Assembly (NCBI RefSeq): GCF_900100865.1
Contig: NZ_LT627734.1
Coordinates: 186,001-250,000 of the forward strand
Origin: Candidatus Aquiluna sp. UB-MaderosW2red
Lineage (GTDB): Bacteria > Actinomycetota > Actinomycetes > Actinomycetales > Microbacteriaceae
Direction: 5' to 3'
DNA: 64,000 nt
Shown here: positions 5,562-53,274 of the stretch, piece by piece
Layout of the letters: each line of letters starts with the position of its first letter
Numbering within the stretch: position 1 is the stretch's first letter
Notes under the pieces: generated by a model
Databases searched by the model: none
What the model was told of the DNA's origin: nothing
What the model saw: only the letters and a program-made list of their open reading frames with translations
Translations under genes and position numbers: made by a program

Positions 5562-6785
5562 TCAAGAGCTGTGGATAACCTCGGAATCCAGCTGCTTGAT
5601 GTATTTATTACTTGAAACTAGTGCCGCGGAAATCAGCACGCAGACGCCCAAGACGAAATAGACCGCCTTCACGCCAAAAGCGTCGGCTGCCACCCCGACA
5701 ATCGCCATCGAAATCATCGGCCCACCGGACCAAATCGCCATCTCTAGGGCGAACACTCGACCGCGCTTATTAGCCGGGATCTGTTTTTGAATAACGGTAT
5801 TGAGAAGAGGTAATAGCGGCCCCCATGCCCCTCCAAGCAAGATTCCAAAGCCAATCATCCAAGGCAAACTAGGCAGTTGACTCATTGGGATCATCGCGAT
5901 TGCTACGCCGAGAATTCCGATTCGCAATATGTTGCCGTAGCTGACGCGCTTATGGATTTGCTCGAAGAACAGTGCTCCGAATACCGCAGCCCCGGCCATT
6001 GCCGAAATTATTATGCCGAGCGCTGTGGGGTCTTCAAGTTTTGTGTAGGCCGCTGGCAATAGCACCATCTCGGTTGGCAGGTAAATCAAAGCCAGAGTGA
6101 GAATCGCACTCATTAGAAGAAGGACTGCCGGGGTTGCAAAAAGAATCTTGATGCCCTGCATCGCGTAAATATGGAACGGCTCGTCTTCACCCGAATCGTT
6201 TGGCTCGTGCTGCTCTACCACCCTAATAAACGAGGCAAAGATGGCTGATAGAAAGCCGAAGCCCGCCACCACCCAAAAGGTATTTGCCGAACCAATAAAG
6301 GCGATGCAGAAAGAGGCGAGCGCCGGCCCGATTGCAAACCCAGATGCAAAGACGGCCTCGTGGATTGAGTTTGCTCGATCCAGAGTCATCTTGCCCGCAG
6401 CCGCCACATCTGGAACTATCGACTTCCGAGCGGTTGAGGCGCCAGGGTGAACCATCGCGCGCAAAATGCCAACCACTATCAAGATCGGCAGCGATAGCTC
6501 CCAGAAACCAGCGGCAATGGGAATCATGATTGATGTTAGAAACGTCAGCAGTTCGGCCCAAATGGCCATTCTTTTTCTGCCGAACTTATCGATAATTGAG
6601 CCGAGCACTGGTGCAAATAGCAAGCCGGGTATAGCGCTAACCGCCACCACCAGCCCCGCCAAACCAGCTGAGCCGGTGATTTCAAGAGCAATCCAAGGGA
6701 TTGCAATGAACACCATTGCTCCAGAGATAACGCTCGATACTGAAGCTAACTGGGTGAATATAAAGGGCGCTAACCTGCGCTGCAC
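5562..6785 (-). CDS. MFS transporter, MFS_3 (EntS-like) type
   Basis: Product of 407 residues with about 12 hydrophobic segments. A typical MFS loop 2-3 motif is present (GSIIDKFGRKRMAIWAE, residues about 61-77), and a charged central loop (EQHEPNDSGEDEPFH) separates the halves. The closest family type is the drug or siderophore exporters of MFS_3. The start is the GTG at 6785, with AGAGG five bases before it. It lies 11 bp downstream of pyrE, so the two probably share a transcript, though no functional link is evident. The substrate is unknown. A perfect DnaA-box 9-mer happens to lie at the very 3' end (5570-5578). Confidence 0.85.
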   Translation of the reverse strand: MQRRLAPFIFTQLASVSSVISGAMVFIAIPWIALEITGSAGLAGLVVAVSAIPGLLFAPVLGSIIDKFGRKRMAIWAELLTFLTSIMIPIAAGFWELSLPILIVVGILRAMVHPGASTARKSIVPDVAAAGKMTLDRANSIHEAVFASGFAIGPALASFCIAFIGSANTFWVVAGFGFLSAIFASFIRVVEQHEPNDSGEDEPFHIYAMQGIKILFATPAVLLLMSAILTLALIYLPTEMVLLPAAYTKLEDPTALGIIISAMAGAAVFGALFFEQIHKRVSYGNILRIGILGVAIAMIPMSQLPSLPWMIGFGILLGGAWGPLLPLLNTVIQKQIPANKRGRVFALEMAIWSGGPMISMAIVGVAADAFGVKAVYFVLGVCVLISAALVSSNKYIKQLDSEVIHSS

Positions 6786-37114: not shown

Positions 37115-38458
37115 CTAGCTTGGCATATTTACGAAGCGAGAGTACTGACCGTGGAAAGCAACCGTTACAGTTCCAGTCGGGCCATTTCGCTGTTTGGCAA
37201 GTATAAGGTCCGCTTCGCCAGCTCGCGGGTGATCTTTTTCATAGATTCCCTCTCGGTGCAAAAGAATCACGACATCGGCGTCCTGCTCCAAAGAACCGGA
37301 TTCCCTAAGGTGAGATAGTTCTGGGCGCTTATCTTTGGCCTGCTCTGCCTGGCGATTGAGCTGTGAGAGCGCAACAACCGGCAATCCGAGCTCCTTAGCC
37401 AAAAGCTTGAGGGCTCTTGAGAACTCAGAAACCTCTTGCTGCCTTGATTCGACTTTTTTGCCCGAGGACATTAGCTGAATGTAATCGATGACCACCATCT
37501 TCAGATCCACCTGCTGGGCCAGCCTTCGGCACTTAGCGCGGATCTCAACCAATGACATGTTTGGACTGTCATCGATGTAAAGCGGCGCATCGTTTATTCT
37601 GCCGCGGACTGCGGCAAGTTTGGTCCAGTCTCCTTCGGAGACCGTTCCCTTGCGCATGTATTGCAGATAAATCGAAGACTCGGCGCTGAGCATGCGCATC
37701 GCAATTTCGGCGCGGCCCATCTCCAAAGAAAAGAAGATCGTGGCCTGATTGTGCTTAATGGCCGCGTTACGGGCCACATCCAGAGCAAAAGTAGATTTAC
37801 CGACCGCTGGCCTGGCAGCAACAATCACAAGCTGCCCCGGGTGCAGGCCGTGGGTATAGGCATCCAGATCAGTAAAGCCGGTTGGAACACCGGTCATTTC
37901 GCCACCGCGTTTTTGGGCAGTCTCAATTTCCCGAATGGCAGCTTCGATGGAATCACTCAGACCCACGTAGTCCTCGCGAGAGGAAAGGCTTGAAACTTTA
38001 TAGACCTCGGCCTGGGCTTGGTTCACAAGATCTTCAACCTCGCCCTGGCTCTCGTAGCCGGACTGCGCGATTCTGGTTCCAGCATCGATTAGCCGGCGAA
38101 GAATTGCCTTATCGGAAACGATCTTGGCGTAGTAGCTGGCGTTTGCCGCGGTCGGAACATAGCTTGTGAGTGAGTGAAGGTAGTCGGCTCCGCCGGCTTT
38201 CACCAGCCCACCGGACTTATTGAGTTCGTCAGTTACCGCAATCACATCGGTTGGTTCACCTTTGCCAAACAGGCTCAGAACTGCGTTGTAGATTAATTCA
38301 TGCTTTGGAGCGTAGAAGTCCGCCCCCGAGACTACCTCGAAGACTTCGGCTACCGCTTCTTGGCTCAAAAGCATGCCGCCCAAAGTGGACTGCTCCGCTT
38401 CTAAGTTGTGCGGTGCGACTCTTGGATCAGAGGCTGGGACCGGTGAAAGCATCGCCAC
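37115..38458 (-). CDS. dnaB: Replicative DNA helicase DnaB
   Basis: Product of 447 residues without an intein. The N-terminal domain (PHNLEAEQSTLGGMLLS) is followed by a linker and the RecA-like domain with Walker A ARPAVGKST, Walker B LKMVVIDYIQLM, and the late HLRESGSLEQDADVVILLHRE. The hexamer unwinds the fork 5' to 3'. I choose the GTG at 38458 because GAAGGAG stands 6-7 bp before it; an ATG follows two codons later. Upstream lies an array of five perfect DnaA boxes. The helicase loader gene (DciA family) is at 57.3 kb. Confidence 0.98.
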   Translation of the reverse strand: MAMLSPVPASDPRVAPHNLEAEQSTLGGMLLSQEAVAEVFEVVSGADFYAPKHELIYNAVLSLFGKGEPTDVIAVTDELNKSGGLVKAGGADYLHSLTSYVPTAANASYYAKIVSDKAILRRLIDAGTRIAQSGYESQGEVEDLVNQAQAEVYKVSSLSSREDYVGLSDSIEAAIREIETAQKRGGEMTGVPTGFTDLDAYTHGLHPGQLVIVAARPAVGKSTFALDVARNAAIKHNQATIFFSLEMGRAEIAMRMLSAESSIYLQYMRKGTVSEGDWTKLAAVRGRINDAPLYIDDSPNMSLVEIRAKCRRLAQQVDLKMVVIDYIQLMSSGKKVESRQQEVSEFSRALKLLAKELGLPVVALSQLNRQAEQAKDKRPELSHLRESGSLEQDADVVILLHREGIYEKDHPRAGEADLILAKQRNGPTGTVTVAFHGQYSRFVNMPS

Positions 38459-38536
38459 TTTGGACTCCTTCGATTCGACAAGACTTGTATAGCTTGGGGT
38501 ACTTACATTGATGTATCAACTCGCACTTTTCGAGCC

Positions 38537-38701
38537 TGTGGATAACCCTGTGGAAACACGCCGATGTAAAGTGGAAAAAGATGTGGATAACCTGTTAGTC
38601 CCTGTGGATAACTTTTCCTAAAGTGCCGCATTGACGGGTGTTTTGCCTGTGGATAAAAAAATGTAGAAAACTCTAAACCTAAACCTTAGGGTTGTGGATA
38701 A
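38537..38701. promoter_or_regulatory. Array of five perfect DnaA boxes in the dnaB upstream region
   Basis: The 309-bp gap between dnaB (38458) and rplI (38768) contains TGTGGATAA, the complement of TTATCCACA, at 38537, 38582, 38603, 38648 and 38693. All point the same way; spacings are 45, 21, 45 and 45 bp. A degenerate copy, TGTGGAAAC, is at 38549. The oriC cluster at 54.7 kb has six. The array could control dnaB transcription, titrate DnaA, or act as a DnaA-reactivation site. The rest of the gap holds the rplI terminator. Confidence 0.85.
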
Positions 38702-38716: not shown

Positions 38717-38754
38717 CAAAAAAGTAACGGCCCGCCTCTAGGCGAGCCGTTACT
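38717..38754 (-). terminator. Rho-independent terminator after rplI
   Basis: A 15-bp stem (AGTAACGGC... paired with ...GCCGTTACT, one mismatch, 38723-38754) is followed on the minus strand by a run of T, 14 bp beyond the rplI stop. It ends the rpsF-ssb-rpsR-rplI operon and separates it from the DnaA-box array. Confidence 0.85.
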
Positions 38755-38767
38755 TTAATGAATCAAC

Positions 38768-39220
38768 TTACTTTGCAGCAACAACCAAAAGCTTGACTCG
38801 AGCAACTATTTCGGCGGTCAAGCGAACCGACGCCTCGTAGTCACCCAAGTTGCGGATTGCACTGGTGAATTCAACCTTGCGCTTATCGATTGCACCGATG
38901 CCGGCAAGGGCAACCGCGTCAACCAAATCGGTGGTCTTCACGGTGCCGAACAGGCGACCGCCCGTTCCAGCGTTTGCAAGGATGCGAATTGGATTTTCCT
39001 CAAGCTTTGCCTTGAGCTCCTTCGCTTCGTCTTCGGATGCGATTGCGCGTGCATCGCGTGCCGAACGAATCGATGTGATCTGCTTCTCGCCACCCTTGCT
39101 CCAAGAAACCGCGAGGCCGTTTGGAATCAAAAAGTTGCGAGCGTAGCCATTTTTAACTTCTACAACATCGCCTGCGGAACCAAGTCCGGAGACCTCATTG
39201 GTCAGAATTAGCTTTGACAT
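38768..39220 (-). CDS. rplI: 50S ribosomal protein L9
   Basis: Product of 150 residues. The N-terminal rRNA-binding domain begins MSKLILTNEVSGLGSAGDVVEVKNGYARNFLIPNG, followed by a long connecting helix (ASEDEAKELKAKLEEN) and the C-terminal domain. L9 binds 23S rRNA near the L1 stalk and helps keep the reading frame. It is the last gene of rpsF-ssb-rpsR-rplI, 12 bp after rpsR, with a terminator following. Confidence 0.97.
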   Translation of the reverse strand: MSKLILTNEVSGLGSAGDVVEVKNGYARNFLIPNGLAVSWSKGGEKQITSIRSARDARAIASEDEAKELKAKLEENPIRILANAGTGGRLFGTVKTTDLVDAVALAGIGAIDKRKVEFTSAIRNLGDYEASVRLTAEIVARVKLLVVAAK

Positions 39221-44608: not shown

Positions 44609-45526
44609 ATGCGCGAAGTCATCATTATCGGTTCCGGCCCGGCCGGCTACACCGCAGCCATATACGCAAGCCGAGCGCTGCTGAAGCCCCTCATGATCGC
44701 CTCGAGCGTTGAGCCTGGTGGCGAGCTAATGAAGACCACGGATGTGGATAACTACCCCGGTTTTCCCAATGGATTATTGGGGCCAGACCTAATGGCGGCC
44801 TTCCAAGCCCAAGCGGAGCGCTTCGGCACTGAAATTCTCTTTGACGACGTAATTGAAGTAGATCTAACCGGTGACATCAAAATAGTAAAGACCGGCAATG
44901 GCGAGACCCACCAGGCCAAGGCGGTCATTATTTCAACCGGGGCCGCCTACCGTGAGCTTGGATTGCCGAAGGAAAAGGAGCTCAGCGGGCACGGGGTTTC
45001 CTGGTGTGCCACTTGCGATGGCTTCTTCTTTAGGGATAAGACGATCGCAGTTGTTGGTGGTGGCGACTCAGCCATCGAAGAAGCCACCTTTCTCACAAAG
45101 TTTGCCTCCAAGGTCTACATGATTCACCGTCGTGATAGCTTTCGAGCCTCCAAGATCATGCAAGAAAAAGCCTTCAACAACCCAAAAATCGAAGTTATTT
45201 GGAACTCGGCAATCTCAGAGCTCAAGGGTGAGGGTTCTCTGAACGGAGTGGTTTTGGAAAACACCGAGACCGGCGCCAAGACCGACTTAGCTATCGACGG
45301 GTTATTTATTGCCATCGGAAGCGATCCACGGGTTGGCCTGATTGAAAACCAGCTAGAACTCTCTGAAGATCGCTTCATCAAGGTTGAGGGTCGCACCTCG
45401 AAAACTTCACTGCCCGGTGTCTTTGCCGCCGGCGACGTGATTGACCCGACCTATCGCCAAGCCATCACCGCAGCCGGTTCCGGCTGCGTTGCCGCCTTGG
45501 ATGCCGAGCACTACCTCTCAAACTAA
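44609..45526 (+). CDS. trxB: Thioredoxin-disulfide reductase
   Basis: Product of 305 residues from the ATG at 44609; the frame opens four codons earlier at a TTG. The FAD motif is IIGSGPAGYTAAIYASRAL (7-25), the redox pair is WCATCDG (Cys133, Cys136), the NADPH motif is VVGGGDSAIEEATFL and the late FAD contact is GVFAAGDVIDPTYRQAITAAGSGC. It reduces thioredoxin using NADPH. It is followed by trxA 15 bp later and preceded by a SigR-type promoter, so the pair should respond to disulfide stress. Confidence 0.97.
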   Translation: MREVIIIGSGPAGYTAAIYASRALLKPLMIASSVEPGGELMKTTDVDNYPGFPNGLLGPDLMAAFQAQAERFGTEILFDDVIEVDLTGDIKIVKTGNGETHQAKAVIISTGAAYRELGLPKEKELSGHGVSWCATCDGFFFRDKTIAVVGGGDSAIEEATFLTKFASKVYMIHRRDSFRASKIMQEKAFNNPKIEVIWNSAISELKGEGSLNGVVLENTETGAKTDLAIDGLFIAIGSDPRVGLIENQLELSEDRFIKVEGRTSKTSLPGVFAAGDVIDPTYRQAITAAGSGCVAALDAEHYLSN

Positions 45527-53066: not shown

Positions 53067-53211
53067 GCTACTTGAAAGAAAATTAGGGATAAAAAATCTC
53101 TTCTCACATAACAGAGAAAATATTGCGACCGACACGCCGATTGGATTTGCATTTAGACCTAGATATTCACCATGATGAGAGCTAAGGAGGAAATAGGTCG
53201 ATTTATAAGAC

Positions 53212-53274
53212 TTATGCACAGAATTTACAATACTTATCCACAACCCCAAAACATGTGCAAACATCTGTGGATAA
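53212..53274. promoter_or_regulatory. DnaA boxes upstream of dnaA
   Basis: TTATCCACA at 53234-53242, its inverse TGTGGATAA at 53266-53274, and a one-mismatch TTATGCACA at 53212-53220. They stand 20-80 bp before the dnaA ATG, the usual place for autoregulation of dnaA and possibly part of a bipartite origin. Confidence 0.85.

What the first reader, a model, noticed from the sequence alone, without database searches (positions are those of the whole stretch)
38537..38701. Oriented, evenly spaced array of five perfect DnaA boxes upstream of dnaB, 16 kb from oriC
TGTGGATAA occurs five times in 165 bp, all in one direction, at 38537, 38582, 38603, 38648 and 38693, giving steps of 45, 21, 45 and 45 bp. 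The array fills the gap between the rplI terminator and dnaB. The origin itself has only six perfect boxes, in mixed orientation. By comparison with E. coli datA and DARS, such an off-origin cluster could titrate or recycle DnaA. Because it abuts dnaB, it could also make helicase synthesis respond to free DnaA, linking initiator and helicase levels. The regular step argues for a defined nucleoprotein structure.
Basis: partly seen in the sequence, partly recalled or inferred. Interest (0 to 1): 0.72.

Follow-up and report, generated by a model that had tools for sequence, protein, structure and literature searches.

The report
DnaA-site array upstream of helicase gene
In front of the gene for the replicative helicase this small bacterium carries a one-directional row of binding sites for the replication starter protein DnaA, a layout shared by many relatives in its bacterial class, which suggests that helicase supply is tied to the signal that starts chromosome copying.

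Summary
In detail: five perfect DnaA boxes, one direction, at the stated coordinates, between the rplI terminator and dnaB, 16 kb from oriC. Besides oriC it is the only place in the 1.66 Mb genome with three or more perfect boxes close together. All 20 same-genus dnaB loci have 3-7 such boxes. Across class Actinomycetes 19 of 29 sampled families have perfect boxes upstream of dnaB; in other classes of the phylum 4 of 24 loci do. Boxes mostly point toward dnaB and sit on an ~11-bp lattice (period 11.05-11.1), the register of the oriented DnaA arrays of E. coli oriC. Where dnaB and rplI are unlinked, boxes are at dnaB in 8 of 9 genomes and at rplI in none. In the genus the array ends at a near-fixed distance from a PafBC-type promoter. 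DnaA binding upstream of dnaB is already published for mycobacteria (PMC7738170). So the dnaB-control reading is supported; the datA/DARS reading is not. I read it as a DnaA-controlled, probably activated, dnaB promoter. New here: class-wide extent, one-way 11-bp lattice, companion motif CGGCGT.

The parts
38537..38545 (-). perfect DnaA box, TTATCCACA read toward dnaB (nearest to dnaB)
38582..38590 (-). perfect DnaA box
38603..38611 (-). perfect DnaA box
38648..38656 (-). perfect DnaA box
38693..38701 (-). perfect DnaA box, distal end of the array; aligned with a conserved distal box in relatives
38549..38557 (-). weak box in register, 7 of 9 (GTTTCCACA); the TTTCCACA/TTTACACA core is kept in the 20-genome alignment
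38570..38578 (-). weak box in register, 7 of 9
38555..38563 (-). companion motif CGGCGTGTT, invariant in the 20 aligned same-genus regions
38486..38507 (-). putative dnaB promoter TGTAAG-N10-TATACA: degenerate PafBC-type element; the -10 block AAGCTATACA is invariant in the genus alignment
37115..38458 (-). dnaB, replicative helicase, GTG start
38721..38756 (-). rplI terminator hairpin (approximate ends)
38768..39220 (-). rplI, ribosomal protein L9

Best explanation
The array is the DnaA-responsive control region of the dnaB promoter. DnaA protomers bind the strong boxes and assemble cooperatively, all facing one way, on an 11-bp register that runs toward the promoter; weak boxes may fill some of the empty slots. 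In the genus the row ends just upstream of the conserved -10 region, so it could contact RNA polymerase without covering the -10. I expect DnaA to activate dnaB, so that helicase is made when active DnaA is high, at initiation. Shown here: sequence, orientation, register, conservation, linkage to dnaB, near-fixed distance to the promoter-like element in the genus. Shown by others in mycobacteria: DnaA binds upstream of dnaB, and a DnaA variant that binds less there also under-expresses dnaB. Inferred: cooperative oligomer, sign of regulation, response to DnaA-ATP, and that all this holds in this organism.
For: Conserved in 20 of 20 same-genus loci. Forward 362 against reverse 78 perfect boxes in 192 distinct regions, 61 against 19 in 59 mutually dissimilar regions. 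Register 11.05-11.1 bp. Where rplI and dnaB are 30 kb or more apart or on different contigs, boxes lie at dnaB in 8 of 9 genomes and at rplI in 0 of 9. Nearest box 28 or 38 bp from the TGTCRG element in the 11 of 20 genus regions where the scan found that element. Mycobacterial DnaA binding and reduced dnaB expression with the I282T variant (PMC7738170 section 9). Caulobacter dnaB has predicted boxes and is in the DnaA regulon (PMC8203912 passages).
Against: No binding or expression data in this organism. G405 and G396 have no box at dnaB; 30 of 192 regions have no perfect box. Farther out the box-promoter distance varies widely, 23 to 333 bp, so direct contact with polymerase cannot be general. 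The sign of regulation rests on one DnaA variant. In the window itself the in-register weak sites are not clearly better than off-register ones.
Confidence: 0.7

Rival explanations
1. DnaA represses dnaB through the array: high DnaA lowers helicase synthesis, as in dnaA autoregulation.
For: The same conservation and dnaB linkage; DnaA represses dnaA in several species (PMC8203912 passages).
Against: In the window and genus the boxes lie upstream of the -10 region and do not cover it; the mycobacterial variant with weaker binding has less dnaB, not more.
Confidence: 0.15
2. A titration or reactivation locus for DnaA (datA- or DARS-like) that happens to lie near dnaB.
For: Five strong boxes near oriC. 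dnaB lies 15-85 kb from dnaA in 21 of 22 genomes where the distance could be computed; the exception, G405 (267 kb), has no boxes.
Against: The boxes stay with dnaB when rplI is elsewhere, point toward dnaB, and in the genus keep a near-fixed distance to its promoter-like element.
Confidence: 0.1
3. A second or accessory replication origin.
For: oriC-like oriented 11-bp register. At 4-kb resolution the cumulative GC-skew minimum lies within about 3 kb of the array rather than at dnaA in 3 of 3 genomes examined.
Against: That minimum is confounded by gene direction; third-position skew cannot assign the 15-16 kb between array and dnaA to either side. Best 60-bp stretch is 68% AT against 75% at oriC. 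A usual origin with six boxes lies between dnaA and dnaN.
Confidence: 0.03

Closest known systems
DnaA-bound region upstream of dnaB (Rv0057) in M. tuberculosis and its M. smegmatis homologue (PMC7738170; section 9 read, other passages seen)
   Same: DnaA sites upstream of dnaB; binding shown in vitro and by ChIP-seq; a variant with weaker binding under-expresses dnaB.
   Different: In what I read, box direction, spacing and conservation outside mycobacteria are not described for dnaB; this array has more perfect boxes.
Oriented low-affinity arrays of E. coli oriC (PMC4451416 passages)
   Same: Sites of one array face one way and neighbours are 2 bp apart, an 11-bp register.
   Different: Here the anchors are perfect boxes with empty or weak slots between them, and the site is a gene's upstream region, not the origin.
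PafBC-type promoters (PMC8151990 passages)
   Same: TGTCRG-N10-TA is found upstream of dnaB in 87 of 192 regions; M. tuberculosis dnaB is described as partly PafBC-dependent; the genome has two adjacent WYL-domain genes, one with a near-cutoff match to the PafC HTH model.
   Different: The window's own element is degenerate (TGTAAG, TATACA). The link to a DnaA array is not described in the passages I read.
datA and DARS of E. coli (recalled; not compared by any search)
   Same: Off-origin clusters of DnaA boxes.
   Different: Recalled as stand-alone sites that depend on other DNA-bending proteins; this array belongs to a promoter.
dnaB in the Caulobacter DnaA regulon (PMC8203912 passages)
   Same: Predicted DnaA boxes upstream of dnaB and DnaA-dependent expression.
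   Different: Distant phylum; one-way lattice not examined here.

Membership tests
DnaA-regulated promoter | several consensus DnaA boxes upstream of a gene | tested here: met
DnaA-regulated promoter | boxes conserved with the gene rather than with its neighbour | tested here: met
   8 of 9 unlinked genomes keep boxes at dnaB, 0 of 9 at rplI
DnaA-regulated promoter | DnaA binds the site | not testable with these tools
   published for mycobacteria only
DnaA-regulated promoter | expression depends on DnaA | not testable with these tools
   indirect: I282T variant in M. tuberculosis
E. coli oriC-type oriented array | all sites in one direction | tested here: met
   5 of 5 in the window; 3-7 forward and 0 reverse in each of 20 same-genus loci; reverse boxes do occur in other genera
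E. coli oriC-type oriented array | 11-bp register | tested here: met
   period 11.05-11.1 across relatives
E. coli oriC-type oriented array | neighbouring sites exactly 2 bp apart, filled by weak sites | tested here: inconclusive
   window boxes skip slots; two 7-of-9 weak sites are in register, but the mean in-register score (4.3) is close to that of small offsets (4.0-4.2)
replication origin | AT-rich unwinding element | tested here: inconclusive
   best 60 bp 68% AT against 75% at oriC; window mean 48%
replication origin | GC-skew switch | tested here: inconclusive
   cumulative minimum near the array but confounded by gene direction
PafBC promoter | TGTCRG-N10-TANNNT | tested here: not met
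   window has TGTAAG-N10-TATACA; TGTCRG-N10-TA is met in 87 of 192 regions of relatives
datA | IHF-dependent DnaA-ATP hydrolysis or titration | not tested
   feature recalled
DARS | DnaA nucleotide exchange on a defined box trio | not tested
   feature recalled

The most novel reading that the evidence does not exclude
The dnaB promoter of class Actinomycetes carries an oriC-style DnaA assembly lattice: a one-way, 11-bp-register platform that senses active DnaA by cooperative filling, as the origin does, and releases a pulse of helicase synthesis at initiation. An origin-type nucleoprotein device reused as a transcription switch, combined in many species with a DNA-damage (PafBC-type) promoter and an unidentified CGGCGT-binding factor.
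Probability: 0.35. Interest if true: 0.78.

Novelty: new variant of a known kind. Interest (0 to 1): 0.56.

Why it matters
How a cell matches helicase supply to initiator activity is, as far as I know, open in most bacteria. A conserved cis element that joins DnaA to dnaB across much of a large class, with a defined geometry, makes the question testable by promoter mutation. It would also show oriC-type spacing rules at work outside an origin, and would make the published mycobacterial DnaA peak at dnaB one case of a class-wide feature.

Tried and rejected
Duplication artefact: rejected, no tandem repeat found and the spacers differ by eye. Structured RNA: seven Rfam matches up to E 1, all below gathering scores, most of them on or beside the terminator hairpin; dropped. 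Titration, repression and a second origin: see rivals. A 10.5-bp (B-DNA) register: R is 0.35 at 10.5 against 0.81 at 11.05 in the dissimilar set. Window-only weak-site test: in-register slots average 4.3 of 9 against 2.3-4.2 at other offsets; too few sites to claim. A PafBC name for the two WYL genes: no NCBIfam match at 1e-5; Pfam gives WYL for both and the PafC HTH for one at 31.4 bits, just under its cut-off of 32; so PafB/PafC-like only.

Prior art: ten literature searches, some with capped listings (one search showed 15 of 100, 12 of 37). Of the papers opened I saw one section and passages of PMC7738170, and passages of PMC8151990, PMC5656591, PMC4451416, PMC8203912 and PMC13270200; in these, only PMC7738170 and the Caulobacter work cited in PMC8203912 link DnaA to sites upstream of dnaB. 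Papers of subscription journals are mostly not held.

Limits of the counts: 12 of 204 regions were dropped as identical strings; some of the remaining 192 come from the same genome with different end points (for example L144 and L155). The loci are mostly best-scoring DnaB matches plus stretches that I picked over families (20, 40, out of 199 and 295 genomes searched), not a random sample. The 59 regions are dissimilar by blastn, not independent of ancestry. Outside the class, 8 of 24 scans covered 44 bp or less because the rplI-dnaB gap is that short. One-mismatch boxes are common enough that a single one means little; their direction is the informative part.

Full report
1. The observation. 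Five perfect copies of TGTGGATAA lie at 38537, 38582, 38603, 38648 and 38693, all in one direction. Read toward dnaB they are TTATCCACA. The window has 15 perfect copies against 0.40 expected in shuffles. The genome has 46, and only oriC (six) and this array (five) have three or more close together; the rest are single or in pairs. dnaB (37115-38458 -) and rplI (38768-39220 -) were identified with NCBIfam models; the rplI terminator hairpin folds at about 38721-38756, z -6.4.

2. Close relatives. The window is G000:C1:186001-250000 of a 1.66 Mb single-contig genome. Among named loci the nearest DnaB (85-93% identity) are labelled Aquiluna, Microbacteriaceae or other actinobacterial names, so this is most likely an Aquiluna-type actinobacterium; that is inference. 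Of 22 same-genus genomes searched (own included), 20 gave a full-length dnaB. All 20 hold 3-7 forward and no reverse TTRTCCACA in the rplI-dnaB gap. Which slots are occupied changes between species while the register mostly stays: steps are 10-11, 21, 35, 44-46, 54-56, 89, 97-100, 110 and 146 bp. In G001, G009 and G203 the array holds 5 of 26, 4 of 20 and 4 of 22 genome-wide TTATCCACA; one of G203's four is reverse.

3. Wider class. I scanned upstream of dnaB in 114 loci (L101-L214) from family-wide (199 genomes) and class-wide (295 genomes) searches and picked stretches. 85 of 114 have a perfect box and 101 of 114 have two or more forward perfect or one-mismatch boxes; direction is 132 forward to 17 reverse for perfect and 241 to 51 for one-mismatch boxes. 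By family, 19 of 29 have a perfect box, 22 of 29 two or more forward boxes in at least one locus, and 27 of 29 any box; two families (G405, G396; one locus each) have none. With the genus and sister loci, 192 distinct regions hold 362 forward and 78 reverse perfect boxes; permuted motifs average 0.95 and reach at most 29; 30 regions have none, 49 one, 34 two, 79 three or more. In 59 regions with no blastn similarity over 60 bp or more, 38 have a perfect box; forward to reverse is 61 to 19 (perfect, binomial p 3e-6) and 132 to 28 (one mismatch, p 2e-17). Outside the class but in the phylum, 24 loci hold 4 forward and 2 reverse perfect boxes, in 4 loci; 8 of these 24 scans covered 44 bp or less.

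4. Register. Distances between forward boxes cluster at multiples of about 11: period 11.1, R 0.83, n 379, against a null maximum of 0.17 in 500 trials. For the dissimilar set 11.05, R 0.81, n 36, null maximum 0.66 in 2000 trials; distances from perfect to one-mismatch boxes give 11.05, R 0.62, n 124. Eleven bp is a 9-mer plus 2 bp, the spacing reported for the oriented arrays of E. coli oriC, whose sites face one way (PMC4451416 passages). The period differs from 10.5, so I read it as the pitch of adjacent DnaA protomers rather than of free DNA; this is inference.

5. Whose array is it? Of 51 loci without rplI found next to dnaB, I took 30 genomes and located rplI separately. 28 of 30 have a perfect or one-mismatch box within 700 bp upstream of dnaB; G405 and G396 have none. 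Within 700 bp downstream of rplI there is no perfect box except in G390 and G436, where rplI is in fact close and the boxes are the same ones; four others (G396, G307, G234, G252) have a single one-mismatch box. In the nine genomes with the genes 30 kb or more apart or on different contigs (G405, G479, G265, G385, G347, G354, G319, G404, G327) eight have boxes at dnaB (G265 and G354 one-mismatch only) and none has any at rplI. The array belongs to dnaB.

6. Promoter. Aligning the 20 same-genus regions shows an invariant AAGCTATACA, preceded by a mostly conserved TGTC, and an invariant CGGCGTGTTT followed by a proximal block of boxes at a near-constant distance. TGTCRG-N10-TA matches the PafBC consensus given for M. 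tuberculosis, where dnaB is called partly PafBC-dependent (PMC8151990 passages). It occurs in 87 of 192 regions at spacer 10, against 1-17 at other spacers from 6 to 14, 2 on the other strand, and 1.45 on average (at most 12) for permuted hexamers. The window's copy is degenerate (TGTAAG). In the 11 of 20 genus regions where the scan found the element the nearest perfect box starts 28 or 38 bp upstream; in sister genera often 28 or 40; farther out it varies from 23 to 333. The genome has two adjacent WYL-domain genes, PafB/PafC-like, one with a near-cutoff PafC HTH match.

7. Companion motif. CGGCGT lies within 45 bp upstream of a forward box in 97 of 192 regions, mostly at offsets 16, 18 or 28; the best permuted 6-mer that is not an overlapping shift reaches 8. 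In this genome CGGCGTGTY occurs 10 times, including at dnaB, upstream of dnaA, and 71 bp from a perfect DnaA box in front of recA. The reversed control motif occurs 20 times, so the motif is not rare as such; its fixed offset is the point.

8. Mechanism and prior art. In M. tuberculosis DnaA enriches five regions including Rv0057 upstream of dnaB, and M. smegmatis ChIP-seq finds homologues of the same five; [quoted passage not shown] Caulobacter dnaB has predicted boxes and belongs to its DnaA regulon (PMC8203912 passages). Activation is therefore the better guess. A DnaA domain I dimer conserved across Actinomycetes has been reported (PMC13270200 passages); whether it helps assembly here is unknown.

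9. Against. Binding, sign and DnaA-ATP dependence are unproven in this organism. Some genomes lack the array. dnaB lies 15-85 kb from dnaA in 21 of 22 genomes where I could compute it (26 searched; exact contig length was not at hand for four), and the exception, G405 at 267 kb, lacks boxes, so a near-origin role is not excluded. At 4-kb resolution the cumulative-skew minimum falls within about 3 kb of the array in three of three genomes, but gene direction confounds it and the third-position test is indecisive.

10. Verdict. A real and conserved element, very likely functional. DnaA binding at this place is known in mycobacteria; the class-wide one-way lattice, its link to dnaB rather than rplI, and the companion motif are what I add.

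Noticed in passing
window 38555-38563 (-) and 53131-53139 (-); L275 1485-1493: CGGCGTGTT/C recurs at dnaB, upstream of dnaA and upstream of recA; at dnaB it keeps fixed offsets to the boxes in 97 of 192 regions. Binding factor unknown.
   Followed up: partly
L275 1414-1422: A single perfect DnaA box lies upstream of recA.
   Followed up: partly
L276 about 1041-1073 (G000:C1:1383540-1383572): Two perfect DnaA boxes in opposite directions 24 bp apart, about 50 bp upstream of an ogt-like DNA-methyltransferase-repair gene.
   Followed up: partly
window 53212-53274: Upstream of dnaA: TTATGCACA at 53212 and perfect boxes at 53234 (-) and 53266 (+), consistent with dnaA autoregulation.
   Followed up: no
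window 38657-38692: Next to the distal box a conserved stretch that is not a DnaA box (around CCTTTAGGTTGAGGTTTAGAGTTTTC in relatives) is kept in much of the genus alignment; function unknown.
   Followed up: no
L013-L070, about -280 to -325 from dnaB: 42 of 58 sister loci also have a perfect box in the opposite direction, usually at the rplI end of the gap, facing the forward array.
   Followed up: no
L279, L284 and window around 38.5 kb: Cumulative GC skew reaches its local minimum near the dnaB array rather than at dnaA in three genomes; probably a gene-direction effect but not settled.
   Followed up: partly
L177 (G405), L176 (G396): Two genomes without any box at dnaB; in G405 dnaB lies 267 kb from dnaA and 294 kb from rplI.
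   Followed up: partly
window 5570-5578 and 44743-44751: Single perfect boxes inside an MFS efflux-like ORF and a thioredoxin reductase gene; probably chance.
   Followed up: no
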